Source of the DNA: Nannobrachium achirus
Lineage: Eukaryota; Chordata; Actinopteri; Myctophiformes; Myctophidae
Assembly (NCBI GenBank): GCA_963921795.1
Contig: OY997653.1
Span: forward strand, 6,182,104 to 6,246,103
Direction: 5' to 3'
DNA length: 64,000 nucleotides
Shown here: in pieces, positions 19,400 to 62,219 of the stretch
Layout: each line of letters begins with the position of its first letter
How positions within the stretch are numbered: position 1 is the stretch's first letter
Position numbers and translations under genes: made by a program
Notes under the pieces: generated by a model
What the model saw: the letters and a program-made list of their open reading frames with translations, nothing else
What the model was told of the DNA's origin: nothing
Databases searched by the model: none

Positions 19400-21045
19400 G
19401 AAAAATGTGGTTCTGAATTGGCATCCAGGGACTGTGTGTGCACACTTTGGCTGAGACCGGGCCAATGGCGCCAGAGATTAGCTGGTAACAGACGGACGCA
19501 CGCACACACAGACGACCCAGGGGGTCCCCAGACCCTACTTTGAGAACCAATGATCTAAATAGCTGGATGTGAGGCTGCTTTTATTGAATGAATAAAAAAG
19601 AATAGACACTTACTTAGAATGATCTTCCTCAAACCTGGTTTTAGCAACCACTCTCCACAATCGTCCACACTAGAGTTGGAGGAGAGACAAAGTCAGGTAT
19701 TGGACATCAAGGCTGTGGATGAAAGCTCATACTGTTCAGTCTAATCATATGAGGGGATTTCAGTATTTATCTATATTAAAATTGGCTTAAGGGTTGGACC
19801 GGTGGACCTACACAAAAGTCCACACATATCCACACATATGGGGTAACATATAACCATACCAGTAAGAAGCCCTAAGGGCGAGAGGGGCTAGATCACGCTG
19901 AAACAACAGAGACTGACACAATATGTCCATATACGAGGGTCCCCAACATCATCACACTAGTACTGTAAAATCACATGTGTGTCAAATACGACACACGTGT
20001 GATTTTAACATGGTATGTGACTTGTTCGTCTTTGTCTCACACACACAGCCTCCCACCGCCAGAGTTGAATTGTCTACTTATTTCTATGTGAAGCTTGTAG
20101 ACTAGATACTATGAACATTCACACACAGGTAAGTGCTGTTACTGACTAAAAACTATAAAAATACTAAAATTGCTAAAATACAATAATTAATGTTCATAAA
20201 TTCATAGGGCATAAATAATCTTATAAATTCATGGTATAAATAAATATTTGGGTTCATAATTGATTTCATGTAAGGTTAAAATGCATAATATTAAGATGTG
20301 GTTAAAAACATTATGGGATGGAACAATGATTCCCTGCCTGTCTATTAGCTGCACACCGGGACCTCTTTGATGTGGGCTTGATTACATGTCATGGCTCACA
20401 GGTGTTACAAACAGACCTGCACTCTGCCTAGGAGCACAAGCGGAGCTCTGCGTCTTGCAGTCAATAAGATGCACCTCTAAAGTTTATTTTACGTTAAAAA
20501 GGGTAAAGAAAGACGGTGAAAAGAAAGACTACAAGAACTGTATGCAACCTCCGTTGCATACCGAAGAACCTCCGTTCACAATATCGGCCACCGAGGTATT
20601 CTATAATTAGATTTGACTTTGATGTGGACACTGTTTGATGGACACTGCGCGTGGCGCATTTTCTTCATGTTCTGTATTTTCATTTCATGTACTGTATGTT
20701 TGTGAGTACTGTACAAGTTTATTGATTATCGTTTATTATTTGTGTGAACCCAGTTCTCACGGCATGTTTGAAGGAGAAGAGAGGAGGAGAAATAAAACTG
20801 CCTGTTTTCATAAAGAACCGACGCCGACCTGTGTTTGTTGTGAAGGGAGCTACAGGCCAAGTCTGTCATACCTCACAGTGTCCAGTCTATAGTATGGATC
20901 CGCCACAACACCAGAGAGCATCGCTTCTCCTGATTCTCCAGTTTGATTGTAGCTCAAGTTCAACTCTCTCAAATGGGAAGGGTTGGAGCGCAGAGCTGAG
21001 GTCAGAGAAGAACAGCCTTTCTCTGTGACCAGACATCCTGACAAA

Positions 21046-21130
<85 letters not shown>

Positions 21131-21418
21131 GAACATTTTCTTTCTTTTAATTTAGACAAAGTTTAACACAGTTTCAGGCATACTGACTTCAGAGTCTCCA
21201 GCATGCAGTGTGGACTCCCCAGTCCCACAGCCAAAAGGTTTACGCCAGAATCCAGCAGGTCATTGTTGCTCAAGTCCACTTCTCTCAGACTAGAGCTGGA
21301 GCTGAGAGCTGAGGACAACTCCTGACAGCAACTCTCTGACAGCTTACAGCCACGCAGCCTGAAGAAGCATTAGTAATATAGCATTTATTCATCATTCGAT
21401 TTCTGTATAATAAATATC

Positions 21419-21491
<73 letters not shown>

Positions 21492-24400
21492 AGCATGCAT
21501 GCACGCAAGCGTGCACACACACGCGCGCATGCACACACACACACACACACCCGCGCGCAAACAATGTTACATTCAGTTCCATTGAATTTAGAAACATATT
21601 TGGTTTCATTTAAACACAGTTATACTGACTTGAGTGTCTCCAACATGCAGTGTGGACTCCCCAGTCCCACAGCCAGAAGGTTTACACCAGAATCCAGCAG
21701 GTCATTGTTGCTGAGGTCTAGTTCTCTCAGACTAGAGCTGGAGCTGAGAGCTGAGGACAACTCCTGACAGCAACTCTCTGACAGGTTACAGCCACTCAGC
21801 CTGAAGGAGGATTAGTGATAAAACATTTATTTATTTGATTTTCTGTTAAAGAAAGATCATATAATATATGAAATATATCTAGTTATCAGTGAACCTACAG
21901 CGCTTTATTAGAAGCTTTAAGCACGGGCAGCAGCCCCTGAAGCGCCTCCTCTGAAGCAGAGTATTTCTTCAGGTCAAACACGTCCAGCTCCTTTCCTGAA
22001 GACAGCAACGTGAAGACCAGAGCTGACCACTGAGCAGGAGAGAGCTTGTCTGTAGAGAGACGTCCTGACATCATGTACTGTTGGATGTCCTCCTCTTGAG
22101 AATGATCATTCAGCTCATTCAGACAGTAGAACAGATTGATGCTTCTCTCTGGAGATGGATTCTCTCTGATCTTCTCCTTGATGTATTCGACTGTGGGCTT
22201 GGTCTTGAAGCGTTTTCCTTTCTGTGTCAGCAGTCTCTCTAGGAGTTTCTGATTGGTGTCCAAAGAGAAGCCCAGCAGGAAACGCAGGAACAGATACAGA
22301 TGTCCATTTGGACTCATTAAGGCCAGGTCTACAGCGCTTTTGAAGAGGAGATGAATCCTGGATTTGTAAATCCTTCCAAATAACTTGTACCGCTTGGAGG
22401 TTGAGAGTAGGTTTTCACCAGTGTTGATGAAAGTGATGAAGACGTGGAGGGCAGCCAGAAACTCCTGAATGCTCGGATGGACAAAGGAGAACACCTTGTC
22501 CTTGTACGTTCCACACACCTTTTTAAATACCTGTCTGAACACTTCTGAGTACACTGCGGCGTCTCCGATATCAATGCCAGACGCTGTCAGGTCTTCTTCA
22601 TAGAAGATCAGCTGGTCTTTCTTCAGCTGTTCAAAAGCCAGTTTCCCCAGAGACAGAATGGCATCATTTGGATTCCTGTCGGGATGTTTCTGAATTAGGT
22701 CTTGATACTTCTCATTCTTCTGTATGGACTGAATCAGCAAGTAATGGATGTACATGGTAGTCTGGGTCTTTGGCAGTGCTTCTTTCTCCTCTGTGCTCAA
22801 CAGTTCCTCCAGAACTCTAGCAGTGATCCAACAGAATACTGGGATGTGGCACAAGATGTGGAGGCTTGGCGATGTCTGGATGTGTGAGTAGATTGCACCG
22901 GCCTGCTGTTCATCACTGAATCTCTTGAAGAAGTACTGCCTCTTCTGCATTTCATTAAACCCTTTAACTTCTGTATACCTGTCAACATAATCAGAAGGGA
23001 TCTGGTCGGCTGCTGCAGGTCGTGTGGTTATCCAGATTTTAGCTTTTGGAAGAAGATTTCCCTTGATGAGGTTTGTCAAGAGCACGTCCAATGTGGTTGA
23101 CGTTTTGGGGTCCGTCCACATCACAGTGTTAGGGAAGCGTAGAGGTGGCCGAAGTTCATCTAACCCATCAAAGATGAACACAACGTTGGGATTGTTGAAG
23201 ATGCAGATTCCTACATTCTTGGTTTCACTAAAGAATGTATGAAGAAGTTCCTCCAAGCTGTACTCCTTCTTCTCCAAATTCAGCTCTCGGAAAGTGAATG
23301 GAAACACAAAGTGGATATCCTGGTTGGCTTTATCTTCTGCCCAGTCCAGAGCATACTTCTGAGTTTGAACCGTTTTACCAGTTCCAGCCACTCCCTTCGT
23401 CATCACTGTTCTGACTGGTTTTGCGTCTCCAGGTAATGCTTTAAAGATGTTTTCACTTTTGATTGATGTTTCTGGATAGGCTGGTGTCCTGGAGGCTGTT
23501 TCAATCTGTCTGATCTCATATTCTTTATTGACGTCTCCACTGCCTCCCTTTGTGATGTAGACTTCAGTATAGATCTGATGCAGAAGTGTGTTTTGTCCTT
23601 CGGTTGCAATCCACTCAGACAAAAGCAAAAGCCTCGTTGTCAGATTAGACTTCAGTTGTCGTTTGCATAGAGCTTCTGAAAGACCAAAGAACACATCATT
23701 GAGAAATATGGTCCTCAAATGGGAGGTCTGCAAATGTTGAATTGTGTTCTTTGTTTAATCTTTTTTTTTAAATTAATGTACTGTATTAACTCATTCTGAG
23801 CCCCAGACATTAACGGATTATAATGTCCAAAGTGCCTCCTTCAGGTCCCATTCACTTGCGTTGTCTTATTTTGGAGGCCAGAAGTCCACCGCGCAATCAC
23901 TTCCGGTCTGACGTCATCGGATCGTGCGCCGGAACCGATCCGTGTCCACGTGGAGTTGGCTGTAATGGCCGACCGGGAGCTTTTATAACTGTGTAACATA
24001 AGCGAGCATCTGCCTCCATCCTAGCTTCTAAAGTGTAGTTTTGAGATAATGGACATTAAAGATGAGATCCCCCGTCCACCTCAATGTTATGGATGGGACT
24101 ATTTTGTGCTCGTGGAGCCGTGATGATGCGAAATCAGCGACGGATTTCGTCTCCGGACCGCCGGCCATTCTTCTCGGCAATGTACTCGCCGTTACAGTAA
24201 TAGATTACTTTTCCCGAGATATCCCGTGAATGGCACTACAGATACTCGAGTACATTTCGCGAGACATCTCGGGAATGGCACTAGATGAGTTAATGTACTG
24301 TGTGTTTTTTTTTATTTAATAATGTTTGGGAACAAAATCTGTATTTTGAGGCCAAAACTTAATGAAGGTGTGCACACAAGTTATAATTAGGGCTGGGACG

Positions 24401-27400
24401 CAATAAAAAAAAAACATTAATCTAATTAATTACAGGCTTTGTAATTAATTAATTTAATTTTCAATTTTTAATGGATTTTGGTATACGAGGGAATCAATTA
24501 ATAACAAATACAAGCTTAAGCAACAAAACAATGCTTATTTTGTAACCAAGGTTGTACTTAAAGCTATACTGTGTAAGTTGCTCAACTGGTGGTCTGTAGC
24601 AGTATAGCAAACCGCGGTCGCGTTTGCTTTTTTCGTCCGTTTTTCGCTCGCGGACCGGGCCGTCAGACCACCGCGTCCGCCTCGCCTCGCCGAGACGCTT
24701 TCAATGAGGTCTCCCGTGTCCTTCTACGAACAGCGGTTGGAGAGTTACATGCTAGACTCCTCCAGTGTAAACACTGCAGTGTACTTCCTGAAGGCGTGTT
24801 TCCTAAACCCACCAGAGAGCCCGGCAGTGTATGTTCTGCGCTGTGATTGGCCGGCAGTGTATAACCCTTGCTGTGATTGGCCGGTAGTGTGATGACGCAA
24901 TTTTTCCGCGAAAACCGGTCCCGGGCAGGGATCATAGAAAACATATAAAGAGAAGGCTTTAGAAGCTGAAAATAACGGAGTGGGGGTTCTAAAACTTTAG
25001 CGATTTAACAGCTAGGACCATTTTAAGATTTGTTTTATAAAAAAATGTACATGGTACAACTTTAAACAAGATCAACAGATCAGTGCAATTTTAGGAACAT
25101 AGTGTACATTTGCGTTTCAGGTAACCTGTATAAATTAAACACTTAAACTTATATTATCCCCACATCTCAGGGGTCTTCAATGTTTTCCAGGTCAAGGACC
25201 CCTTAGCTGAGGGAGAGATGAAGCAGGGACCCCCACTACATATTATACAATTTGTGTTGCAGATTAAACCTTTTCATATTGCTTCTAGTCCGGGGCCCAA
25301 GGGATATTTTGGTTCAGATTCTTGCAAATTCGCCAAATTTGGCACACAGATGTTGTCCATACCATACTTAATAATTTTAAGATGGGTGCCAAGATGAGCG
25401 CCCCATGGTACTGCCATATTGCGCAATCCAATATGGCTGCCACCCGAAAAAATCATAGAATCTGATTCTGGTGTTATTTCAATGATTTGCGATCTAGATT
25501 ACCCCTCAAATCAAGTTTACTCATCAAAGTTAGTATATAAAGATAATATCGGGGTAAAATCCAGTATTTCTAGTGTGCCACGCCAGATTCTACCCCCCCC
25601 CCCCCCAAAAAAAAGAAAAAAAAGAAAAATCTCATTATAAGCTATACTTGTATAATGTAGCAATGTTTCACAATTCAAAACAATATTGTCAAAACAGCTG
25701 ATAGTTTATTATAAACAATAAAACAATACAAACAATTTTTAATTAAAACTGATATGTGCCAACAAAATCAAAAAAGAAAAAGAAAAAAATGTATCTAGGG
25801 ACACACAGCACCAAAATGTCCACAAGTCCAACTTCAACTGTAAGTAAACAACTGACGGTAGGGGACAATGTAATCAGAATTGTTATCAGTCTGTTTTCCC
25901 GTAAAACAGTGACAGCTTAACAGGATGTGACACAACTTCCCAGTTTCTCGGATGTGGCAAGAAGACAGCTTGGGCAGCCTGGAGAAGCATACCAGACCTC
26001 ACCAACACAATAGTGGCTCTCACACACACCCCTGACCTCTTCAGTCTTCAGTCTGTGCATATGCAGAACATTGAAAGTTTCGTCATGCTCATGTACATCA
26101 AGGGGTGTGGTGCAGCTGGTGTCAATGAGGCCAGACATCGCCTCTTCACCACTGGAAGTAGATCACTGGAAACCATCCCACCTACCCAAGCTGCACTGTT
26201 CCAGCATGTCAAGCGAGCGCTACTGCAGGCAAGTTTCTACTGGAATCAGGCAACCTCGGTCCAGCAGGAAATTCCTGACTTCAGTGAGTGGGGCTGGCAC
26301 AAAGATGGCACTGGCACATGGCAACCACTGTGGACCACTCTTAGTGATGCATCAGCAGCACGTGACCTTCTTGTGCGCTGCGGCTGCCTCAAGGGATGCA
26401 TGGGAAGTTGCAAATACAACTGTATCGGTGTCCGATGCACAATCCTCTGCAAATACGAAGGTGGGTGCCTTAATAACGGAGATGACAGCCAGTAACTCCA
26501 CACCTTGCAAGGTGTTTCATGTGTATGAAAGATCCTATCCTCAATGAGACCTGCAGCATAGTGAGTGGTCGCCTCAAAGCCACACCTACACACTGCCTTT
26601 ATGGCCTCTCTGGCATCCTCCCCCCTGACCTCCGCAGAACAGTCACCACAGAAGTTGAACGCACAAAGCAGGCCATCGTCACCCAGCATCTACTCCATAG
26701 ATACTCTTCTGCCCAGAAACAGCTCCATTCTAGGAGCAGTTTCCTGGACACCAGTGTGGCTCTGGAGACCACCCCACCCGCCCCAGACAAATGCCTCGCC
26801 ACCGGTCATGACCAACCTTGGGCTGTCTGGAAGACACTGAACCGACTTCGCGTCAGTGAAGGAAGGTGCAAGGCTTCCATGAAGAAATGGAACTTAACCT
26901 CCGATGTGTGTGCGTGTGGGGAACCCCAGACAATGGAACACCTCATGAACCTAGCCCAGGCTACACGGAACCAACTGCTTGTGCTGTGTGTCCCTAGACA
27001 CATTTTTTTTTTCTTTTTCGATTTTGTTGGCACATATCAGTTTTAATTGAAAATTGTTTGTATTAGTTTATTGTTTATAATAAACAATCAACAGTTTTGA
27101 TTGTGAAACATTGCTACAAGTATAGCTTATAATGAGAAAAAACTTTTTGGGGGGTAGAATCTGCCATGGCGCACTAGAAATACTGGATTTTACCCCGATA
27201 TTACCTTTATTTACTAACTTTGATGGGTAATCTTGACCTCAAATCATTGAAATAACACCAGAATCAGATTCTACGACCCAGAAAACCCCTAAAAGGTGGT
27301 ATCATTTATGATTCTAGGCCTTTTCGTTTCTTTACGGGTGGCAGCCATATTGGATTGCGCGATATAGCAGTACCATGGGGCGCCCATCTTGGCACCCATC

Positions 27401-30400
27401 TTAAAATGATTAAGTATGGTATGGACAACATCTGTGCCAAATTTGGCGAATTTGCGAGAATCTGAACAAAACGGTCCTTTTATTGCCCTGGGGCCCTAGA
27501 CTATTCTTAGCCAGACATGTAAAAGTCTCAGCATGCTACTTAGTAAATTTGACCCTAGGCTCTGTACTTGGTCCGGTCCACCCTCTTCCCCTCAGAATAA
27601 AGGCCTATTAGGGTTTAAGTGGTTAATGTAAAAAAAGGGCCCCATCACACATTGAGACCCCCTGTAGTTACTCTGAGGACCTTGGGGGTACCAGACCCCC
27701 TGTTGAAGACCCCTGCCTATATTATTATTTAATAAGACATGTTTTCTCTTCTGGCTAAAAAGTATATTTTAGACGTGAGGTGGGGGCTACTACTAGTGAA
27801 GGTGTATTTTTTATTTTTCCTTTTTTTTTATTACATGTGAGGCTGAGCACAACTTGCACAAGGTCTCGTCAGTACCATAAAGTTAATGAGAACTCTAATG
27901 CTATATGGACCAGAGCCAGATTGGGTAAAGAGGCTAATGTGGAAGCCAAGCTATGCTAATTGGCTAACAACAACACGTTTCGCATAGCGGTGCTTGAGGC
28001 TTGATGTGCTGCGGTGAATTTGTCCACGCTTCCATCCAATTGCTTTTAAAATGTAAATGTCCCATCTACTAATCTTAACGTGCACTGGGGGAGATTGTTG
28101 TGGTCTCCGCTCTGCCTGCCCTGCAGCGGCAGCAGCAGCCATCTATGGCAGCAGCCTTGCAGGTTGGTGCGCCGCTAGATATGACATGGCTCAAACACGT
28201 CCAGTGAGAAAGGTTCCGCGGTGCAAAAATATGTGCGATTAAAATGCGTTATTTCTTTAACACGATAATTATTCTGTAGTTAATTCATCGAAATTAACGC
28301 ATTAAAGTCCTGGCCTTAGTTATAAAAAAATATACATTAATTCAGTGTGCATCATCTTGTGAATTAAGTGTTAAGTTTGAGTTTATATCATTGTTTAGAT
28401 CGTATTATGGTTCTTGGTTGTTTGCTTGAGACTTTAGGCTCAATTTGAATCTACAGACATAATGTATAACTTTCACAATCTGTAGTTGCAATTTTGGGCA
28501 AGTAGGGGAATATCGTGATCAACTGTATTTGTATTTTGAAAAAAGCCAATACAAATAAGAGCAAAAATAACAACACAACATTGTCATACTAGTAGAGACT
28601 GGCTTACTAGCTTGTCTTGACTAGTTTAACTGGCTTTTGTTCTGTTTAAGATCAACAGTTGGACAACAACAGCTGCCCCCTGCGGTAACTAATTGCTTTT
28701 TAGTAGATTCTCACTAAATACCACCATTTATAATTATTTCATGTTTAATACATCTTTCTTTGGAATTCACATTGTACACCAAGGGACAGTAGTTTTCTTT
28801 CAACAGGCTAAATGATGGAACACATATTTCACAAGTGGTGAAACAGAATGCACAGTACGTATAGCAAAATGCTATCACAGCTACAGCTAGTCCTAAGGGC
28901 TGTTTATGCATTTATTTCATGTATGCATGCCAATTTAAGCTCTGACATTTAGGTGAAGGTTAGTCTGCTATTCCTGGATTGTGAGTGTGGCATGTAGTGT
29001 TAGATAAAGAGTAGCTGAGATGTTATATCTAAGACTCACTCTGTGACCCGCTATGGGCAGTGTTGGGAAAGTTCACTTTCTATAAACTAGTTCAAAGTTC
29101 AGTTCACCATTTCTAAAACAAACTACATCAGTTCATCGTTCATAATTCAGATTTTTGAACTAAAAGTTCATGGTTCCAAAACTGAACTATTTTAGTTATT
29201 TTTCCCCTTTTTTCTTTATTTTATTTTTTTCAATACGTTGCTGCGAGCTATTATTTGGCAAAATTATTTCATCCAGTTTAACATTGAGGTGCCCACAATG
29301 TTTAAATATGTGCCCACTGCACACTCTTCCTGCACCCCTTTGTCATTGTCTAAGCTCACAACACGGAAAGTGACGCGTTGTGAGCTTGTAGATCTGCTAT
29401 TTTAGTCAGCCTTTACTTGGAAGTGTGTTACTGTTGGACGAGGAGGAGAAAGAGACGATGGCACGGCCAGGCGTTAAATAAACATTTGCTGTAAAGCCAA
29501 GGTGCGTTCGAGCGGCGCGATTACATACAAAGTGAATACAAAGACGAGGCGACCGTGGGCGCGGCATGAACAAGCCAACGAGCGCCGTTCATGAATGCCA
29601 GAATGAGCACGTTCAAACGGAAATAAAGAACGGTCCGTTCACGTTCGCCCAAAATATGAACGAGTTTGTGAACGATCATTCATTGAACACGTTCGGGTAC
29701 ATCACTGGCTATGGAGAGTGCCCTCTGGCGGGAACAAAGAAGCTTTACCTTGACCAGCGAAGGTCCTGCCCTCTGTCCATAGTCCTGTGTCAGGGGCGGT
29801 CAGTTCAAATTTGTTTCTTGAGCTAAGCACACGCATTACAACTCTTTTTCCATTCGTATAGCCAACATAGTCTCACCAAGGACAGGCTTGATAACCTTTG
29901 CCACGAGGCACTTACGATTGTAGACATAGACGCGTACGAAACATACACGTTGTTACCATATTGTTTTCCCACTACATCGAGGCCAAGTCTCCTAGCCCTG
30001 TAGTCTCGCACTAGGATAGCCCGCTAGTCAGTGTTCTGCACGCTACGTAAGCCAGGTTCATTCCCTGTCTATTTTGACACAGATACACTAGCTGCCATGT
30101 GTTCCAACCACAAAGAAAGCTAGCTGCATCATCTGTAGCCACATGCTAGTATCAAGCTTGATAGGCCAATACCTAGCCCTCGATGACCGGAGTTTGACTC
30201 CCACAGCATAAGTGCCTTATCAGCCCCCACCCCGGACTAGCTTGACTCGCTTCTCCCAGGACGCTACGGCAGGCCTGCCCCCAACAATGTTGATGACGAC
30301 AAGGATACAGAGCCGCAGAGCAGAGCGGAGTAGGAGGATATCCTTGAAATCGTTGACACTTTTGTATATCCTGGTAATATTATAGACGTTAGTAGCTATA

Positions 30401-33400
30401 ATCATCATGTACGCCTGCTTCCTGATTTATCTGTGTCCGTTAGCTGTGTTCTCCAGCAAGGCTCCGATGTTTATTTGTTCCATAATTCGGACTACAATGT
30501 CTTTTATATATGTAAAGACAGTAGGAAAATGGTAGAATGACTGTGGCGAATTGGGCTTCACCCTTGACCTTTGCCAGGTTATACAATCTGGACGTGACGG
30601 TGCCACCAGTAGTGCACACGGTCGTAGGTGTAGCTTCCTGACGGGAACGGACCCCCTAGGGATGGCTATGGAGTTTATTCCATTAGCGAGTCATGGAGTG
30701 AGTCTTAGATATAAAACTATACGTTACTAAAGTAAACCCGGTTTTATAAGACAAGCTAGGTGAAACACCGTCCATGAATGTGTACGAGAAGAAATTGATG
30801 CACTTACAATATATGAAGGTTACTGCGTGTGTTGGGCTTGTTTTGTTTAAAGTTATACCATGTAACTTTTTTATAAAACAAATCTTAAAATTGTCCTAAC
30901 TGTTAAATCGCTAAAGTTTTAGAACCCCCACTCTTACACACCTACAGTTACACTTACAGCAACTTACACAATATAGCTTTAAAATAAAGTCATAGCTCTT
31001 TTGAAGGAAAGAACATTATGTAAAGAAGAAGATGTAGGGTCATTTAGCAGTACATGTGATCTTACCAGGCTTCTCTGTGGTTGACAGCTGTGGTTGGTGT
31101 TGTTTAATAGCATTGTAAAACGCTGCTCTGACGGCTGTTCCACCAGGATCTAGCAGACTTACAAACACTAGTCGCATTTGTTGTCTAGTCTTCTCAGCTT
31201 CAATCTCGATATAGATCTCAGGGTGGACCATGGACCCTAGACTGTCTACTAGAGCCATGACTGTGGTCACACTTTGGATCAGCCGTGCCCTGTTCTGCAT
31301 CACAAACTGAGCTGCTTCAAGAGAGAGAAAGGAAAAAAAGAGTGGTTGAGATAAATGCATCAGAGAATCATAATAGAATTTATTTATCATTATATTTTGT
31401 GCATCTCTATATCCTCTCATGATTAGTAGTGTAAACACTGACACATTTATAGTTTTGTGATAAGATGCTGAGGTTGTACTGTACAACCTGGTAAACACAA
31501 GATGAAACCACTAAAAAACCTCCTCTCTGGTTCAACACTGAACTGTAACACTGAACTGCAATAAAGATAAGAACTCACCTTTTTCTGCATCATTTAGTTC
31601 TGAAGTCTCGTCACCAGCATCCTGTTGTACACCAAACAGCGTGTTAGTTCAATCATAATAGTCTAACAACACGAAAGAACAATGGGCCTTATGCAACATT
31701 CATTTATATGATTTATTGAACAATACATACATAACAATGGGCCTTATGAAACATTCTGTTATCGTTCCTGCAGAAATGCAGGCATGCCTATATTCACAAT
31801 AACACACACACTCTCTTGTGTAATATTACTTAATAATATTCATTCCATTAATTAAGCTCTGGTTTTGTGATAAATAAGGTCTGAGGACCAACATAGCCTA
31901 CGGTGTGACTTTGGTCCTATGTATCCTGATTAAGCACACAAGATACACATGCTGTTCTTTTATAACTAACAGTTTATCAGATTGATATTCATATTATGTG
32001 TTATACCTTTGCATAATTAAATTTAGCCAATATGCCTACCGTTAATTCCAATTTCCATTGGCGTTGATTTGTGATTTATGAGAGTGCCTTCAGGGTTTCT
32101 TGCCTGCTGTATGGTGTATACAGTAGGCCTACTAGTGGTGCCAACAAGTTACCCGCGGACCCCGCAGGTTGACCCACAGTGGAGAGGGTCAGTCAAGATT
32201 TCAGACTCAATGGTTGACTCGCAACTCCACCCCTCCAAATGCTGTCTCCGCCTCGACGTCCGACTACTGTCACAGCGCGCCTCCATTAGCTTCATTCACT
32301 TCAATGGAAATACCGCGGATTTTTACACATATTTTACACATTAAATACTAATTCAGTGTTGGACCCAGAGCTTCAAAATCTCTTCCTGGTCCGTCGGCAG
32401 GGCCTGGCATCAGTGGCATGCGTTGGAGGAAGGTGTAGTAGCCTACACGGCTATTGGAACAAAACCGCAAAGGCATATTTGGAAACGACAGAGAAATGAG
32501 GAAGCTCGTGGCTGCTGGACCACAGATTGCCCTTTTTTATATTAAAAAAATGATTTAAATATGAATACACTGTATTGGCTAAAAGGCCATGACCCATGAC
32601 TCAAACACCTTATTTGTTATGTTAAATAGCTACTGATAAAGTCGCCTAATGAATTAACAATGCGAAGTGTTGTATTTCTGCATTGCTATGCAGTAGACAC
32701 AGGCTGTGTGCAGGGCCTTCATTATTTCATACTTTAGCTATAGCAGATATATAAGCTCACATAGTGCCGCGCTGAGAGCTTGTAGATCTGCTGTTTTTGA
32801 AATCCCCAGATGAAGAACGTTCATGTGGGCCCGCAGTGAATCCTTAGCCTAGCCTACATTTGAAGCAGTTTATTGCCAGTGCTGCTATTTGTTGTCTTTC
32901 TTACTTTGTGTTGTGGCACACATAACACCATCATCACAGATCAAATACATACATTAACACACCGTTTGGGTGTTAAATTCAGTTGTATATTCATTAAGTG
33001 CTGCTATTTGTTGTCTTTCTTACCTTGTGTTGTGGTATACATAACTGTCCAGTCCAGTGATAAAAGTTGGCTTATTTTAGATGAAGTAGCCTATTCCTTG
33101 GTGCTTCTTGATAAACACATATACTGTAGAATGTGTTGGTATAAAATGGATCATACACTTATTGTCTCAGTTCATATGACAAGACTTGATGAAACTCACA
33201 TGCTGCCCAGGTCAATAACACTAATCATTATAATGGCATGAATCGAAGTCTGTGTTGATAATGTTGGCAATGCATGCTTATGGCTGATGCTTATGGCTTA
33301 ATCAGTAGCTATTCATTCTCTCGAGACAGAGTAGTAGCAAGCGACCAAACTTTCCTTGACGATGGCTAGCCAGATTGGTAGCTATTTAACATAACAAATA

Positions 33401-45400: not shown

Positions 45401-48400
45401 TGTGACAAAACAGCGAGCTGCAAGTCTACTTCCCAGCTTTTCGTAGTTATGGGCAGGGCCCGTCAACGGAAAGCGGTGTCCAAGCCCACCTTGTCAAGGT
45501 GGATTGTGGACGCTATTAGGTTGGCATATGCTAGTGCGGGGTCTGTGGTGCCGGAGGCACTAAAGGCCTATAGCACTAGAGGTGTGTCGACCTCTTGGGC
45601 TTTGACCAAAGGGGTATTTGTTGTGGAGATTTGTTTGGCGGCAAATTGGTCTTCGCCGTCTAACTTTGCAGCTTATTACCACCTGGTCATTGCGCCATCT
45701 GCCCTGGCGCACTCGGTGCTGGGTGTGGCTGCCTCTTCTACGGTGTAGAGTGGCAGTTCTCCCCTTCCTGGTCTTAGCATGCTGCTGGCCTTTGGAATGA
45801 GTGGGGGGACCCTGGGTTCCCTTATAATTACTGTGTTTTTATAAGGCAGACCTGTGTCTGCTCCTTAGTGCATAAGGCAGATTTCGGTCTGTCAGGGTCT
45901 CTCTTTCTCTCTCTCTTACACCCAGGCCCGGTGGGTCTGGGACCTTCTGGTTGGTGAGGGGTCATGTCCGTTCGGACCTTGTCCCCTCATCGGTGGGGGG
46001 TGTGTATGAGATGGAACGTTGGTTATGGCTTTCTCGGGGAGTTTATGTATCCCATAGGGGTGTCATCCTGGAGGTATTATAATGAACGGTTAGGTTCCGT
46101 ACGTTCCGTTCCTTGTTCATTTAATACCGGATGACCCCCCGGCTTAAACCCCTCTCTTCGTAAGTCACGATCAGAGAAGCGGTTTTAGAGGACGCCATGT
46201 TGGCTGGAGTCGCTTTTATGCTCTCGGGGCGGTGCCTCCGTTTTTGAGCGACAGTCCTTCCGACGAATCACTTCGACGTACGGGAGTGCATGAGTTTACT
46301 CTGTTGCATCGCTAGAGGGCGATGTTCCCATAGGGGGGTCATCCTGGAGGTATTAAATGAACAAGGGTTCCGTACGGAACCTAACCGTTTCTAACCGTTT
46401 TAACTTTAAAAAAAGAAAAATACCACTTTAAAAATGGTACCTTGTATGCACCTATGCATGGGTTCATGGGTTTTTGCCCCAGGACCTCAGTGGGAGATTG
46501 ACAGGTTTATTTAATTGGAGATAAGTAACCACACCAGCCATAATGTGTATACATCGGCATTCAGCATCTTTCCTAAACGTTCAGATTATGGCAGCATTGC
46601 TAGCTATCTCTCATACTGTACATGCAGGTGTCATGGCACAGGCTCACGACACACATGTAATCATTATGCAAAACAGTGATAATGGCTAATGGGTTAAATT
46701 AACCTAATATACAAACACATTCATGTAGGCTACACACACACACACCATACACTGAAAAATCTGAATTAATAACGGTATGCTAAATAGAATATGCAACGGT
46801 ATAAAACATATGGTATAAAGTTGTATAAGATAGGGTGCAGCTCAATAGACTGGTTTATAGGCTTGTACTCCGATTAGGCCATAGGTTGGATTTTCCCACA
46901 ATGCTTTGAGCAAAGTGGGCGGTGTCACTGCAGACCAGAGGCTCTGATGTAGACTACAAGTGTCCTATTGGTTGGCGGTTGAACCCCACCCTTTGGTCTC
47001 ATCACGGCTTGTTTTAAGCCAAGATTTCCTCGCAACATAATCGCTAACATATATGCTATAAATATAAGGTGCACATTTCTAAATGACAATTTAAGGACTT
47101 TTTAATACCTCTAACATGATAAATTAAACATTGGAAAGATTTTCAAATATTGGAGGCAGAAATTGTGGCTATAGGGAATGAATTGGACGACACCCTCCCC
47201 CCTCATCCCTCAAGGACAAGTAGAGGGCAGGTGATTCTACTGTGTAGGTGGCCATAGACAACAGACAAAAATTGCAGATTTTACATTTTGGTCGTACTGT
47301 TACGACTGGGGTCGTATTTGTATAACTATTGTAGGTACTGTATTGCTTTGGTCCTAGTGTGGTGTGGTGTATGACAGAGCTGAGAGTGTCTGGGAGTGTA
47401 TGCAAAACCGGGGTATCACTCCCAGACAGAGTGAGTGTGTGAGAGCATGTAAAAACAGGTGTGCCGCTCCCAGCAGCTGATTGGTGGGGAAACGACCAGG
47501 ATGGCTGGGATTGGTGGGGAAGTGTTCCTGGAGTTCTGTCTGCTGACTGGCTGACAAGGGTGGAGATTGGGGATAAAAGGAGCAGCAGACCTCGGCCAGC
47601 CACGCAGGGGAGCAGACCTTGTCCTCCTCCTCTCCCAACTGGCACACAACATGTCCTTATGTTTTCTTATGAGTTGATATGAGTTCTGGGTTAAGTTGAG
47701 TTAAGTTGCTTTGAGCCTTTGACTAATGTTTATGTTAAGGAGGTAAGATACTGTTTGTTCTTTTGGTAGGCAAGTGATTTTCTTTGGAGTGAGTTTTCTT
47801 TTGATTTGAGTTTTGAGTTGTCCTTCAGTTATTCCTAAGTGATTCTTCAGTTACTACTGAGTTCTTAAGTTTTTCAGTAGGTTTTCATTAGTTCTAGTTA
47901 TTCATAGACCCCTATGTATTATGTTTCACTTCTATTAACTGTTCTAGTTTGTTATTACCACTTTGTAAATAAACCGCACTTTATGTTGCATTTATAACCC
48001 GTTGTTGGTGTGGCTACTTGGGAGCTGGGGAAGACAAGGGTTAATTTCATGTTGTGTCTCAGGACCCCTAGACTGGGGCATAACATGAATTGGGGGCTCG
48101 TCCACTAGTTTTCTCGTGTGCTTGGTAAGTTACATATTTTCTCTCCTCTTCTGGTTGGCAGTTTGATTAGGTTGGTAAAAATGAGTTTTTCGCTAGATGA
48201 CTTTGTGGCAGATCCTTCTTGGGCAAAAATTGAGAAATGTAAGAAAGAAGAGTTAAAATTGGTGGCTGATGCTTATGAACTTGCTGTGTCTCCTACATTC
48301 TCTAAGGCTGAACTCCGACATCAGGTGTGCTCGCAGCTTGTCGACAAAGGGGTGATACCCCCAGTGACCGGTCTACCTGTGACTGTGAATGGTGAGAAGG

Positions 48401-51400
48401 AGGAGGGGACCTTGCCCGTGGAGGTTACTGATGCGGAGGTACCGGGAACGTCCACAAATGGTGTGGGGTCCACTCCTCGCTCACTACAGACAGGTATGAA
48501 CACGGTCGATCTCCAGCTGACATTACAGATAAGACAGGAAGAGACCAGAAGTAAAGAGCTGGAGATCCAAGCATTACAGCTGCGTTTAAGAGCACTTGAA
48601 CTTGAAAACCCAGCAGCCGGAGGAAGGGCAGGTACACAAAGTGCAGTCGGTGTCAGTAATTCAAGTATGGACATTAGTACATATATCATTGATGCCACAA
48701 TTTAGAGAATCCGAGGTGGACTCATATTTTGGCGCTTTTGAACGGATTGCTGTGGCATTGAAATGGCCTAAGGAATCCTGGGCAATATTAATACAATGTA
48801 AATTAGTAGGAAGAGCCCAAGAAGTATGCGCTACATTGTCAATTGAGCAGAGCCTTGATTACGAGGTAATAAAACAGAGGGTGTTGCAAGCGTATGAGCT
48901 TGTCCCTGAAGCATATAGACAAAATTTCAGAAAAAAAGAAAAAACTGCCAGCCAGAGTTACGTGGAGTTTGCACGCGAGAAAAGCACGTTATTCGATAAG
49001 TGGTGCCAGGCCTCTAAAGTTAGCACATTAGCTGATATGCGGGAACTGATTCTACTGGAAGAGTTTAAAAGATGCTTGCCGGAGAGGATCATAGTTTATA
49101 TTAACGAGCAAAAAGTGTTAAAATTGACAAAGGCTGTGGTCCTGGCTGATGAGTTTGTTTTGACTCACAAGAGTGTATTCACTTCCCCAGCAGCTCATGG
49201 GTTTGCTGTAGGCCCAGAGAAGTGGTCTCCCAAATCTGTGCGTAAAACCACGGCACCGTTATTGGGCGAGAGCCGTGAGTGTTTTTATTGTCGAGAGCCT
49301 GGGCATTTGATTGCCTGTTGTCCTGCTAACCCTAAGAGAAAAGGACAGTCTGATAATTTTCCTGCGGGAATTGGCCTGATTAAGTCAGTTTCTGTGCCTC
49401 ATATCCAATCTGAACGCTGTTCGATGTCTGATGTAGAGGTGGACCCTCGCTTTAAACCTTTTGTATTTGATGGATTTGTTTCCGTGACTGGTAATGAGAA
49501 CGATAAAGTGCCAATAAAAATCTTGCGAGATACGGGTGCTTATCATTCTATCATGCTGGAGTCGGTCCAGCCTCTGTCAAATGAGACTTCATGTAATGCT
49601 GATTTGCTTGTGTGGGGAATTAAAATGAGCGTGATTAAAGCACCATTACACATGGTACATTTTGGCTCACCGCTTGTGTCTGGACATTTTAAAGTAGCGG
49701 TGCGGCCTCAGTTACCAATCGGCGGTGTTGCGTTTATTTTGGGGAACGATATAGCTGGAGGGCAGGTTTTTCCTCCACCCGAGGTCGTTGAATGTCTCAT
49801 TTTGCCTTGTGACTCCCCTGCGTCAACCATACCAAATGTACTCCCTGTGTGCGCAGTTACGCGCGCACAGACTCGTAAAATGGGTCAAATTGTTGAGTTG
49901 TCTGATTCATTTATGGCTACTGTGGATGAAAATGAGCATGATGATGAAGCTGTTACCACCACTAAGATTGAAGGTGTGTTAAAAATGTCAAATGTGTCTG
50001 TATTTCCTGTTGAATCTGAGTTGAGTCTAAAAGTAACCAGAGAAATGTTAATGGCGGCTCAGAAAAATGACCCGTCATTAACAATGTGTTTTTCCTCTGC
50101 CATAGCCAGTGAGGGAGGCCAAAATCCAGTTGGGTTTTTTTTGGAGAACGGGGTCCTGATGAGGAGCTGGAGTCCTGGTGACAGCGAGGTGGTCACTGTT
50201 AATCAGGTAGTGGTGCCAGATAAATATTGGCCACAAGTGCTTAGTATTGCTCATGATTCCAGTTTAGCTGGACATCTTGGTATTAAAAAAACATACCATC
50301 GGGTGCTGCGAAATTTTTATTGGCCAGGCTTAAAAGCTGACATAACTAAATATTGCCGTTCATGTCACACCTGTCAAATTGTAGGGAAGCCGAACCAACC
50401 TGTTCCACCGGCCCCTCTGCATCCGATTCCTGTGCTTGGGGAACCGTTTGAGGACGTAATTATAGATGGTGTGGGCCCTCTACCAAAAACAGTTCCAAGC
50501 ACCAGCGCATGGAGCTCTCCTTGTTTGTTAGTTCCTAAACTCCTGGCGCTCCTTGCTCTGTTGTTTGCCCTACAGTAATTTGAAGTGTACATTGGGTCTA
50601 CTCTCCAGCCTGTAAAGGTTTTTACAGAACATAACCCATTGGTGTTTTTAGCGCAGATGCGTAATGCTAATCAAAGACTAATGCGCTGGTCCATTGCTTT
50701 GCAGGATTTCAATCTGGAGATGTGTCACAAAAAGGGTATTGAAAATGTAATGGCTGACGCGTTATCCAGAGTGTTTTAAAGTGTTAACCGTACAAGGGTT
50801 GAGCACCATAGGGGGGTGCTTAATTCTTGGGAAGGGGGGTGTTACGACTGGGGTCGTATTTGTATAACTATTGTAGGTACTGTATTGCTTTGGTCCTAGT
50901 GTGGTGTGGTGTATGACAGAGCTGAGAGTGTCTGGGAGTGTATGCAAAACCGGGGTATCACTCCCAGACAGAGTGAGTGTGTGAGAGCATGTAAAAACAG
51001 GTGTGCCGCTCCCAGCAGCTGATTGGTGGGGAAACGACCAGGATGGCTGGGATTGGTGGGGAAGTGTTCCTGGAGTTCTGTCTGCTGACTGGCTGACAAG
51101 GGTGGAGATTGGGGATAAAAGGAGCAGCAGACCTCGGCCAGCCACGCAGGGGAGCAGACCTTGTCCTCCTCCTCTCCCAACTGGCACACAACATGTCCTT
51201 ATGTTTTCTTATGAGTTGATATGAGTTCTGGGTTAAGTTGAGTTAAGTTGCTTTGAGCCTTTGACTAATGTTTATGTTAAGGAGGTAAGATACTGTTTGT
51301 TCTTTTGGTAGGCAAGTGATTTTCTTTGGAGTGAGTTTTCTTTTGATTTGAGTTTTGAGTTGTCCTTCAGTTATTCCTAAGTGATTCTTCAGTTACTACT

Positions 51401-54400
51401 GAGTTCTTAAGTTTTTCAGTAGGTTTTCATTAGTTCTAGTTATTCATAGACCCCTATGTATTATGTTTCACTTCTATTAACTGTTCTAGTTTGTTATTAC
51501 CACTTTGTAAATAAACCGCACTTTATGTTGCATTTATAACCCGTTGTTGGTGTGGCTACTTGGGAGCTGGGGAAGACAAGGGTTAATTTCATGTTGTGTC
51601 TCAGGACCCCTAGACTGGGGCATAACACGTACAGTGACGTGCTTTCCAGGAGTTGCGTAGTCGAAATGAGCATATTGAACTGAGCTGTCTGCGACTCTGC
51701 GTCACAGTATTTACGACACTGTGGTCTTTCGGGGGGCGTGTTCTCTCCTCCACATCATCAGCGCCCACACCCTAGGTGGGGTTGGCAAAATAGTAATGTG
51801 TAGGTCTAACGTTGCGCTATACTTTCTGTAATATAATAATGTGTAGGCCTAATGTGATGCTATAATGGCCGCGTTTCCCAAAGCGATTTTGAGTGCTCGT
51901 AAGCTCAGGCATGGTCGTAGAGACCAAAAAAAACGTTTCAAGAACGCCTTCGTAGCCTGCGCAATCAAGAGCAATGAGGGCTTTCAGGAAACCGGTCGAG
52001 AGTGTACAATGGAACCAAATGGCTGTGATGACGGTTGAATGCACACCTTACGAATGGCCATCGTAAGGAGGATTTTAGAAGCAAACACCTTTCCCGCAAG
52101 ATTCCCACGGGTGCTGCAGACCTGTCTTACAATGGCTATTTTAATGGTGCGCCTGGGGCGCCCGTAAGCACCCTTCTAGAAAACTGAGCACATATATAAC
52201 TAAGTATAACTATGAAAGTATAATTAAAAAAAAACTATCTAAGTAACTGTGGATGGTAGAGTAGGCTATTCTACACACCTGCTATACAAAATAAACAAGT
52301 GAACTATATTTTCATATTTATATAATAAATAAATAAAAATACAAAGGTGAACTATATGCTTTATGTAATGCGTGTCGCTTGCTTTGATATATACCGGTAG
52401 GCTACTGAGAAATAGCGCACCACAACATACACACTTACATAAAAAAGAACAAGCTTATAGGCTGCCTCAAGTGGGTCCGTGGACCAGTGGGGTTCCCCTG
52501 TCCCCAGCTAAAAGGCATGCAGTGATGCGTGGAAGCGGTGATAGAACTTGGATCATCCAGTCGCTAGTCCAACACACAACCCCTCACGCCAACACGACTC
52601 AGCGAGAACCAGTGGTTCCTAACTTGCAAACTTCCAAACTAAAATATAACAGCCCTGCGCCTCTTTAGCCCCTCGTGCCAACACGACTCAGCGAGAACCA
52701 GTCCGCTCAGACAGTGGGCTGGAGCCAGGCACTCATCATCCTACACTCTGAGTTAGCCTACATTTTGGAACCATTAGTTCCTAACTTGCAAACTTCCAAA
52801 ATATAACAGCCCTGCGCCTCTTTAGCCCCTCGTGCCAACACAACACTGAGCTAAAGAGGCAGGACGGTTATATTTTAGTTTGGACGTTTGGAAGTTAGGA
52901 ACCAAATGGTTCCAAAATGCAACTCACATTTTGAGAGTGTAGGATGATGATCGCCTGGATCCAGCCCACTCACTGAGCGGACTGGTTCTCCAGCGCTGAG
53001 TCTGAAATCAGGCTAGGATGATGAGGGTCCATTGGTTCATATAACTAATTATAGTCCTATAATTATTACAGCCAAGACGGGGCGGACAACAGCCTTAGTA
53101 GCTGAACACAGCTTATTAGCATGACGAGTTGTGAATTGGACTAAGCACTGAGAGCCTTGGGTTCGACTCCCGCTTCAGCAGATTGATATAAACGATACAG
53201 AGAGTCCCCGAGTCTCCTTTTGAGAACCAATACTCTAGTCTACAATACTGTCATAGTAGGCCTAGCCTATAAAATACAAAAATAAATATTTAAGACGGGC
53301 AGTTAAAGGTATATTCAGTGATTGTATTTCATTCAAATAAAAATATAATTGGTACATTTTCCATTCATTCTCCTCACTAGAATGTGTGGTGACCATATAA
53401 GGACTGCCACCATGGCCCGTGTTACGAGCATAGCTAGATTCCGTTTTCAGAGGTTGCCAGCCAGTCCTCGACCAATCAGGGTAGAGTATGGCCGTAGTTA
53501 TGTTATGATGTTTAGTTATGATGGTCAAAATAAATGTTTTGAGAACCACAGTCGCTCTAAATTAAGAACGTCTGCTAAATGTCTAGATTGTAAACTACTG
53601 AATTCATAAAATGTCACAGTCTAGTAGTAAATCAGTATCATACATATCCTGAAGCTGGAGACGTAGGCCTACCGATATTCAGTGATTGGGTCTAATGATC
53701 AAAACGAGAACATTATAATGGTGTAGACAATCTATACAAAAATAAACATTTCCATGCTGTAAGGCCATGTGACCCCCGGCCACTTTCATTGTATGAAAGT
53801 GTATTTTCACTGAATACACCTTTAAGTCACTTTGTGCAGTCAGTTATAGGCCTACCAACAGGCAACAGCGATTAAAGCTTTGCATGTAGTTTCAAATTAA
53901 AACAAGGGGTTTGTACAGTCAGTTTAGCTGCTAAAAGTTTGTTAATTTTCAGCGTTGTATGTTTTATTGATGGGCCGAGTACAATCACACAAACCAACAG
54001 CTGAAATTCATTTGGGAGCGCAGCTGCTGACGTCCTATCAATCGAAGCCCAGAGCCATTCAAGGAGAGTTTCAGGGAGAGTTGCATCATATCCGTTCACA
54101 TGGGGCCAGAGTTTGCAGAACTCTCTAGTACAAGGCTCTGGCCAGCCCAAGGACATGCGTAGGCTGTTTTGAGAGGGGGGGGGCGTTTGAGAAACGCCGT
54201 CACCGTAAGGACCGCAGCCTTACGAAGGGCTTTGTACGACCTGTGCTTTGGGAAATGCAGCCAATGTCTGTTATATAATAATTTGTAGGTCTAATGTGAT
54301 GCTACAGTATAATGACTAATATAATAATGTGAAACCTAATATAATGCTATAATGTCTGTAATATAATAATGTGTAGCCTAGATGCACGAAGACATCCTGA

Positions 54401-60909: not shown

Positions 60910-61022
60910 AAAAAGAAAAAAACAAGAATTGACACAGTCAATATAAACTCTGGTGTTCTGCCGCTTCCACGCATCGAAAAAGGAAAAAAACAAGAATTGA
61001 CACAGTCAATATAAACTCTGGT
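60910..61022 (+). repeat. Duplicated leader segment with a short pol patch
   Basis: CAAGAATTGACACAGTCAAT and flanks occur twice, 68 bp apart. The spacer contains CCGCTTCCACGCATCGAA (60961-60978), which also occurs in sense orientation in the reverse transcriptase frame at 63511-63528. Confidence 0.85.
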
Positions 61023-61038
61023 GGATTGGTGTAAAAAC

Positions 61039-62219
61039 ATGAGTTTGGTGGACTTGCAACAGGAAGTGGCTACGCTTAAAGCCAGAGTGCAGGCTGATAA
61101 AGAGACTATAAGTCAGTTGAGAGATGAGAATGAAGCCTTATCGCAGAGAGCTGAGTCTGACTCAAGTAAACCTCCTGAGACTGCTCAGTCCTCCACTAAT
61201 CAGGGGTTGGTGGGGGGGCAGGGTGGGACAGCGGGGGGTGAGAGCTTAGCTGGGGGCGCCAGAGAGCGCATTGTATATTTGCCAAAAGAGAAAAAATGTA
61301 CAGTGTTCACTGGTGGGTCCAGTGCTATGTTTTATGATTGGCTGGATGAACTTAATGCCACTTTGATTTATCGTTCTTATACTGAAGCTGAAAAAGCCGC
61401 CTACATTTACGAGCAGTTGGGAGGTGAAGCAAGGCAAGAGATAAAGTATCGCCCTCATGGTGAACGGTCAAACCCAGTGTGTGTGTGTGTGTGTTGAATA
61501 TTCTCAAAGAGATATATGGGCAGCCCCAGTCCCTCACTAAGTTGCAAAAACAGTTCTTTGATAGAAGACAGCGAGAGGGGGAGTCTGTCCGGGAATATTC
61601 ACATGCATTAATGGCTATTATGGAAGAGATAAATCATTGTAATGTGAAAAACGCATGGTGTGGCGATTTTGCTTTGCGTGACCAATTTGCAGAAAACGTG
61701 GGTGAGGTTGGCCTACGTCGAGAGCTAAAGAAAACAATCCGTCAGAAACCAACCATTTCGTTTTTCGAGCTCCGCAGGGAGGCTTTCCAGTGGGGGGAGG
61801 AAGCTGATTGTGGGGTGGAACGTAGAAGGCGGGTGGGGGGTTCCTGTGAAGAAGCTGGGGCCACATCGGTTGAAACAAGTGTGGTTACTGCAGCAATGAA
61901 GCCTGACCCGACGCTTGCCAAGGTTTTTGAGATGTTACAAAAACAACAGGGTCTAATTGATGACCTATCACAAAAAATGGCCGCTACAATGTCGGTATCG
62001 GGACCCAAGCGAACAGAGAACCGTAAATGGCAACCTCGGTAAGACGCGTCGGGTCAGCCGATTTGCTTTAAGTGCCAAACAGCTGGCCATATTGCGCGGA
62101 ATTGTGTGGCGCCGCGGCCTAACCAGAGTCGTGAGCGTTCAGCGCATGCAGTGCCCGCCGGGCATGACGGAGCAGTGCAGATGTTAGAGCATCAGGGAAA
62201 CTGTCCCCCCCTGTGGTGA
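61039..62219 (+). pseudogene. Gypsy gag, broken
   Basis: First part (61039-61497): MSLVDLQQEVATLKARVQAD coiled coil, a linker, then capsid words VFTGGSSAMFYDWLDELNAT. A (GT)n run at 61479-61496 shifts the frame. Second part (61500-62042): LTKLQKQFFDRRQREGESVR and ISFFELRREAFQWG, ending at a TAA (62041-62043) just before a CCHC zinc knuckle (CFKCQTAGHIARNC) that continues to a TGA at 62219. So it carries one frameshift and one in-frame stop. Confidence 0.85.

What the first reader, a model, noticed from the sequence alone, without database searches (positions are those of the whole stretch)
47293..51632. Recent Gmr1-like insertion with integrase before reverse transcriptase
The protein order is protease, integrase zinc finger and core start, then reverse transcriptase start and RNase H end, which is the inverted pol order of the Gmr1 group. 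The two 788-bp LTRs look identical and the CGTAC duplication is exact, yet integrase core and polymerase are deleted. So an internally deleted derivative was mobilised in trans very recently inside an immune gene intron.
Basis: partly seen in the sequence, partly recalled or inferred. Interest (0 to 1): 0.74.

Follow-up and report, generated by a model that had tools for sequence, protein, structure and literature searches.

The report
Shortened jumping gene borrowing missing enzymes
This is a recent insertion of a shortened fish jumping gene that keeps its particle-protein genes but has lost most of its copying and cutting enzymes, so it, and the three sister copies found in the same genome, were most likely spread with enzymes borrowed from intact relatives.

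Summary
In detail: 47298-51627 has two identical 788-bp LTRs, an exact CGTAC duplication, and remnants ordered Gag-protease-integrase-RT-RNase H. Relatives in the same genome carry SCAN Gag and integrase before RT before RNase H; 47 of 65 match rows run from integrase core to RNase H in one stretch. The window copy is one of four near-identical internal regions found, all with the same two in-frame deletions (about 2.05 kb). Flanks are unrelated, three copies have exact and different TSDs, LTR pairs differ by 0-1 bases, insides by 2-4%. A deletion lineage was thus copied repeatedly and recently without full RT or integrase: trans-mobilisation is well supported. No full-length element with this LTR was found (40 of 55 candidates scored); the nearest families are ~70% identical in DNA but share LTR tips and primer site in the two examined. 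Gag-protease differences look constrained (39 N/37 S), the later part not (42 N/14 S), suggesting self-made Gag-protease; four sequences only. The window copy's own Gag frame is broken. Placement in an immune intron is unproven. New family of a known kind (compare mouse IAP 1-delta-1, plant TR-GAG).

The parts
47293..47297 (.). Target-site duplication CGTAC, left copy
47298..48085 (+). 5' LTR, 788 bp, TGTTA...TAACA
   Evidence: identical to the 3' LTR
48091..48103 (+). Primer-binding site TGGGGGCTCGTCC, 5 nt after the LTR; resembles the 3' end of tRNA-Pro (recalled; not confirmed here)
   Evidence: exact in this copy and L009, one base different in L010 and L016; first 12 bases shared by two relatives
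48109..48705 (+). Gag N-terminal frame (first ATG 48181, read by eye); ends at a stop before the capsid, frame broken in this copy
   Evidence: a single open frame runs on through Gag in L009 and L016
48590..50578 (+). Second frame: capsid, zinc knuckle, protease, integrase zinc finger and core start, RT start, start of RNase H remnant; stop at 50576-50578
48905..49171 (+). SCAN-type capsid domain
   Evidence: Pfam PF02023 E 4.2e-14
49277..49324 (+). CCHC zinc knuckle (weak)
   Evidence: Pfam zf-CCHC E 0.32, below cut-off
49487..49753 (+). Aspartic protease with L-R-D-T-G-A motif (weak by profile)
   Evidence: Pfam RVP E 0.11, below cut-off; motif read from sequence
50213..50383 (+). Integrase H2C2 zinc-binding domain
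   Evidence: Pfam PF17921 E 1.5e-22; Ty3 and PFV integrase in PDB
50384..50491 (+). Start of integrase core, through the first catalytic Asp region; ends at deletion join 1
50492..50539 (+). 16-residue RT start between deletion joins 1 and 2
   Evidence: 88-94% identical to RT start of L025, L026, L027
50540..50776 (+). Later part of RNase H, interrupted by the stop at 50576-50578
   Evidence: Pfam RT_RNaseH E 2e-6; 70-73% identical to relatives
50829..50839 (+). Polypurine tract next to the 3' LTR
   Evidence: read beside the C233 and C470 elements
50840..51627 (+). 3' LTR, 788 bp
51628..51632 (.). Target-site duplication CGTAC, right copy

Best explanation
A non-autonomous deletion-derivative family of a Gmr1-like (Ty3/Gypsy) LTR retrotransposon in a fish. 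An ancestral full-length element (Gag-protease-integrase-RT-RNase H in one frame) lost two in-frame stretches, about 1.18 kb from integrase core to RT start and about 0.89 kb from RT body into RNase H. The shortened RNA keeps LTRs, primer site, polypurine tract and Gag-protease, so it can be transcribed, packaged and copied, but RT and integrase must come in trans from full-length Gmr1-like elements. Shown: shared deletions in four insertions, near-identical LTR pairs, clade order, open-frame relatives, matching LTR tips and primer site in two of them. Inferred: that the lineage's own Gag-protease still serves it (purifying-selection signal), that trans supply is the route, and which kind of family helps. 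The window copy is a recent product with a broken Gag frame.
For: Internal-region search of the genome: 4 copies at 96-100% (40 of 40 candidates scored); next best are short fragments, then families at ~66-71%. All four align across both joins, and the join regions are nearly identical. LTR pairs differ 0/788, 1/783, 0/795, 1/420; insides differ 2.2-3.8% between copies. TSDs CGTAC, GTTGA, GTGCT; 1-kb flanks unrelated. Stop-free frame of 887 aa (L016) and 912 aa (L009, to the end of the internal region) through Gag to RNase H end. Relatives L025 and L026: H2C2-rve-integrase C-term-RT-RNase H, SCAN Gag pieces; of the 47 spanning rows, 31 lie in frames of 1509-1693 aa with no stop in the match. 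C233 and C470 share the LTR start TGTTACGA and primer site. Site-wise changes: Gag-protease 39 N/37 S, omega about 0.42, binomial P 1.8e-4 against the neutral synonymous share from simulation; after protease 42 N/14 S, omega about 1.18; Fisher P 0.007.
Against: No full-length element with this LTR was found (40 of 55 candidates scored), and the nearest families are ~70% identical in DNA, so the helper is unproven; for C20:7.05 Mb no LTR pair or primer site was seen in the stretches fetched. The selection test rests on four sequences and limits set after a first look: putting the protease-integrase spacer with Gag gives Fisher P 0.16-0.17, and the Gag N-terminus alone is 9 N/4 S. Private changes of L016 and L009 are unevenly spread (KS P 0.047, 0.022), which may mean recombination. 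Two of four copies are damaged (the window copy; L010 has one stop in Gag). L009 has no TSD.
Confidence: 0.82

Rival explanations
1. Purely passive parasite: the derivative RNA is packaged by Gag from full-length relatives and its own Gag-protease is dispensable; the open frames are leftovers.
For: The window copy has a broken Gag frame and a stop yet inserted recently; two of four copies have lesions.
Against: Gag-protease omega about 0.42 versus about 1.18 after protease; the direction holds when the private changes of any one copy are left out. The lesions may postdate insertion or come from the last round of copying.
Confidence: 0.3
2. The synonymous-rich differences in Gag-protease were imported by template switching with full-length elements rather than selected in the derivative.
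For: Uneven spread of private changes in L016 and L009; the contrast comes partly from more synonymous changes, 33 in 346 codons of capsid-knuckle-protease against 14 in 333 codons after it.
Against: No full-length element near enough to donate patches differing by a few per cent was found; the nearest families differ by about 30%. Change densities of the three regions do not differ significantly (chi-square P 0.14).
Confidence: 0.15
3. The deletions happened in place, after insertion of a full-length element, by host DNA repair.
For: The window copy alone could look like that.
Against: The same joins in four insertions with unrelated flanks.
Confidence: 0.02
4. The missing stretches are spliced introns of a retro-copied transcript.
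For: Two precise in-frame losses.
Against: The two relatives read at the joins show no GT...AG there (by eye), and the lost parts encode integrase core and RT.
Confidence: 0.02

Closest known systems
Gmr1-like clade of Ty3/Gypsy elements (Atlantic cod Gmr1; Gmr1-Gmr4 of pufferfishes)
   Same: Integrase upstream of RT; SCAN-type Gag; single Gag-Pol frame of similar length in relatives (published 1506-1634 aa; here; passages)
   Different: Two in-frame deletions remove most of integrase and RT; LTR of 788 bp is longer than the 337-518 bp listed for pufferfish Gmr elements
Mouse IAP 1-delta-1 proviruses
   Same: Multi-copy deletion derivative with a Gag-Pol fusion frame, non-autonomous yet recently mobile; 1.9-kb deletion versus about 2.05 kb here (review passages)
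   Different: Endogenous retrovirus; part of gag also deleted; the fusion protein was reported to act in cis. Here Gag-protease is kept and only a selection signal suggests a cis role
Plant TR-GAG elements
   Same: LTR element with a Gag-encoding frame and a potentially autonomous relative; transposition observed in Arabidopsis (passages)
   Different: Plant Copia example encoding Gag only; here animal Gmr1-like with protease and fused Pol remnants, and no close helper found
Mouse ETn/MusD pair
   Same: Most germ-line mutations of the pair come from the non-autonomous ETn (passages)
   Different: ETn carries no useful coding frame (recalled); this family keeps Gag-protease

Membership tests
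Gmr1-like clade (Ty3/Gypsy) | Integrase upstream of RT and RNase H | tested here: met
   Remnant order in the element plus full order in relatives L025, L026 and 47 of 65 rows; 16 further rows form 8 same-strand pairs in that order, 2 start further in
Gmr1-like clade (Ty3/Gypsy) | SCAN-type Gag capsid | tested here: met
   E 4.2e-14 here; 1.4e-14 and 1.3e-14 in two relatives
Gmr1-like clade (Ty3/Gypsy) | Grouping with named Gmr1 in an RT or integrase tree | not testable with these tools
   The derivative lacks most of RT and integrase; no named Gmr1 sequence was at hand
LTR retrotransposon | Two LTRs with TG...CA ends, TSD, primer site, polypurine tract | tested here: met
   the primer tRNA itself was not identified
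Non-autonomous deletion-derivative family | Several independent insertions sharing the same deletion | tested here: met
   Four copies
Non-autonomous deletion-derivative family | A coding partner able to act in trans | tested here: inconclusive
   Many open Gmr1-like frames, two examined share LTR start and primer site, but none found with this LTR
TR-GAG / IAP 1-delta-1-like (own Gag serves the derivative) | Gag under purifying selection after the deletion, or shown cis effect | tested here: inconclusive
   Contrast significant with the split at the end of protease, not with another split; four copies; cis effect not testable
Insertion in an immune-gene intron | Exons of one gene on both sides of the element | tested here: inconclusive
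   NLR exons found on one side only

The most novel reading that the evidence does not exclude
A vertebrate retrotransposon lineage that has become a stable half-parasite: it keeps a selected Gag-protease of its own, while RT and integrase come from families about 30% different in DNA that merely share LTR tips and primer site, so that its original full-length parent could die out without stopping it.
Probability: 0.35. Interest if true: 0.62.

Novelty: new member of a known kind. Interest (0 to 1): 0.45.

Why it matters
It gives a natural test of how much of itself a retrotransposon must encode. Most of integrase and RT is gone in every copy found, yet four copies inserted with LTR pairs that differ by at most one base. 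If the selection contrast holds, Gag and protease are needed in cis while RT and integrase are shared goods. That no same-LTR full-length element was found also raises the question of whether helpers may come from a diverged family.

Tried and rejected
In-place deletion was rejected because four insertions share the joins. Intron splicing was rejected: no GT...AG at the joins in the two relatives read. RT-before-integrase order was rejected. Possible close partners from partial LTR hits were read and look like old fragments: L020 and L022 (ORF lists only); L036 and L037 (no Pol match by tblastn); L035 (LTR and Gag-end matches only). L028 is a decayed RT piece whose first 37 bp match the element's RT start at 95%. 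IMG/VR gave no relative for a 192-aa integrase query (11 pattern matches, none confirmed). The primer tRNA was not identified: no tRNA in the window; an 18-base tRNA-Pro-type pattern gave 0 window matches with up to 3 mismatches; an 11-base pattern gave 740 genome matches against 240 for the reversed control, and the 6 loci cut from it held no tRNA. Rfam found nothing in the window. A first N/S pass used rough segment limits whose labels did not match the domains (pooled pN/pS 0.62, 0.22, 0.35, 0.40, 0.70, 1.25; whole frame 0.40-0.58 per pair); one search supersedes its segments. Papers PMC3209298 and PMC4350172 are not held. Eight literature searches showed, by titles and starts of abstracts, no Gmr1-like deletion family; passages of eight papers were read, no paper in full.
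Full report
Observation. The element is real and at the stated place. The LTRs (47298-48085, 50840-51627) are 788 bp and identical, with TGTTA/TAACA tips, and CGTAC lies on both sides. With 0 differences over 1576 LTR sites, the 95% upper age is about 0.19 to 0.95 million years for assumed rates of 1e-8 to 2e-9 per site per year (the rates are recalled, and gene conversion could mimic youth).

Coding anatomy. One frame (48590-50578) holds a SCAN-type capsid (E 4.2e-14), a zinc knuckle and a protease below the profile cut-offs (0.32, 0.11; the protease with an L-R-D-T-G-A motif), an integrase H2C2 domain (1.5e-22) and the start of the integrase core, then a 16-residue RT start; the later part of RNase H (2e-6) follows. 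The first Gag part is in another frame (48109-48705), so Gag is broken in this copy, and a stop lies at 50576-50578.

Clade. Relative L025 has, in one open frame, H2C2, integrase core, integrase C-terminus, RT and RNase H in that order; L026 likewise. Two relatives' Gag pieces carry SCAN domains (1.4e-14, 1.3e-14). A search with the integrase-core-to-RNase-H protein scored 57 of 4391 candidates and gave 65 match rows (counted by hand). 47 rows run from query position 57 or earlier to 743 or later in one stretch; 31 of those lie in frames of 1509-1693 aa with no stop in the match. Of the other 18 rows, 16 form 8 same-strand pairs in the same order and 2 start further in but keep it. Published accounts give integrase upstream of RT as the Gmr1 hallmark (PMC8220671, PMC6238403; passages), SCAN domains in over half of frog Gmr elements (PMC4131045; passages), and SCAN as derived from a Gmr1-like Gag (PMC3424704; passages).

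Deletions. Against L026, the element lacks residues 144-536 and 553-848, both in frame, about 2.05 kb in all. L025 and L026 show no splice signals at the joins.

A family, not an accident. The internal region was found in four near-identical copies (96-100%; 40 of 40 candidates scored, 53 matches): the window, L010 (C5:55.2 Mb), L016 (C1:71.5 Mb) and L009 (C5:14.1 Mb). All carry both deletions. Three have exact, different TSDs; L009 has a truncated 5' LTR and no TSD. The 1-kb flanks share nothing by BLAST. LTR pairs differ 0/788, 1/783, 0/795 and 1/420, while insides differ 2.2-3.8% between copies. Changes private to the window copy are about as dense in its LTR (8 of 788) as inside (28 of 2754); since its two LTRs agree, the LTR ones arose before insertion and most inner ones probably did too. 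Six further single LTRs were aligned: five with intact ends and repeated flanks (one lies in a CA repeat, hence uninformative) and one with a damaged end; a seventh LTR is split. Copies lacking most of RT and integrase therefore inserted repeatedly and recently, which requires those enzymes in trans (inference).

Helper. No full-length element with this LTR was found (52 matches, 40 of 55 candidates scored). The nearest families are about 70% identical in DNA. One (C233; LTR 605 bp, GGGGG on both sides) shares the LTR start TGTTACGAC, the TAACA end, the TGAAT spacer and the start of the primer site; another (C470) shares TGTTACGA, the primer site and a similar polypurine tract but ends in TTACA without the spacer. 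For C20:7.05 Mb the LTR start was read next to Pol, but no LTR pair or primer site was seen in the stretches fetched. Help is not shown.

Does the lineage use its own Gag? L016 and L009 have stop-free frames of 887 and 912 aa; L010 has one stop; the window copy is broken. Site-wise changes from start of Gag to end of protease are 39 N and 37 S (plus one stop), omega about 0.42, binomial P 1.8e-4 against the neutral synonymous share from simulation. After protease they are 42 N and 14 S (plus one stop), omega about 1.18; Fisher P 0.007. Within Gag-protease the signal is in capsid-knuckle-protease (30 N/33 S; per-segment simulation P 0.017, 0.038, 0.007); the N-terminus (9 N/4 S, P 0.52) looks neutral. 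A split that counts the protease-integrase spacer with Gag gave Fisher P 0.16-0.17, so the boundary matters; the end of protease is the natural one but was chosen after a first look. With slightly different limits and two-state sites only, one search gives 14/4, 30/33 and 40/14 for Gag N-terminus, capsid-protease and the rest, and the contrast keeps its direction when the private changes of any one copy are left out. Four sequences and possible recombination limit this.

Setting. A minus-strand NLR gene lies in the window: CARD exon 31043-31510, FISNA-NACHT exon 21898-23754, weak LRR 20853-21146. The element is about 16 kb upstream of the CARD exon. None of 8 tested ORFs beyond it gave an immune domain; not every ORF was tested, so 'in an intron' is open.

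Comparison. Mouse IAP 1-delta-1 (1.9-kb deletion, Gag-Pol fusion, non-autonomous, reported cis effect; PMC6466679 passages) and plant TR-GAG (PMC8704663 passages) seem to work alike. This appears to be a new family of that kind in the Gmr1 clade; the searches behind that statement are (titles and starts of abstracts; open-licence papers only).

Mended against the calls: row and frame counts, the kind of test behind the P value, the primer-site differences between copies, the C20 negative, and the boundary-dependent test.

Noticed in passing
window 20853-31510 (minus strand): An NLR gene with CARD, FISNA-NACHT-winged helix-HD2 and a weak LRR exon; the fish-specific FISNA domain suggests that the host is a fish.
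   Followed up: partly
window 61015-62042 (plus strand): Two overlapping frames; the second has weak PNMA and Retrotrans_gag matches below cut-off, perhaps another LTR element's Gag.
   Followed up: no
G000, many contigs: Dozens of Gmr1-like matches in long open frames, several with near-equal scores: this clade looks recently active in this genome (57 of 4391 candidates scored).
   Followed up: partly
L028 (C10:23671497) and C10:23686808: 37-bp matches at 95% to the derivative's RT start; at the first place a decayed RT piece follows, perhaps a trace of the lost full-length parent.
   Followed up: partly
L020, L022 (C4) and L035 (C20): Fragments similar (77-92%) to the LTR-Gag end of the element, with no Pol seen.
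   Followed up: partly
G000 C23:5.20-5.24 Mb and C1:52.98-53.00 Mb: Repeated partial matches to the last 130 bp of the LTR at 81-84%, several at near-regular spacing.
   Followed up: no
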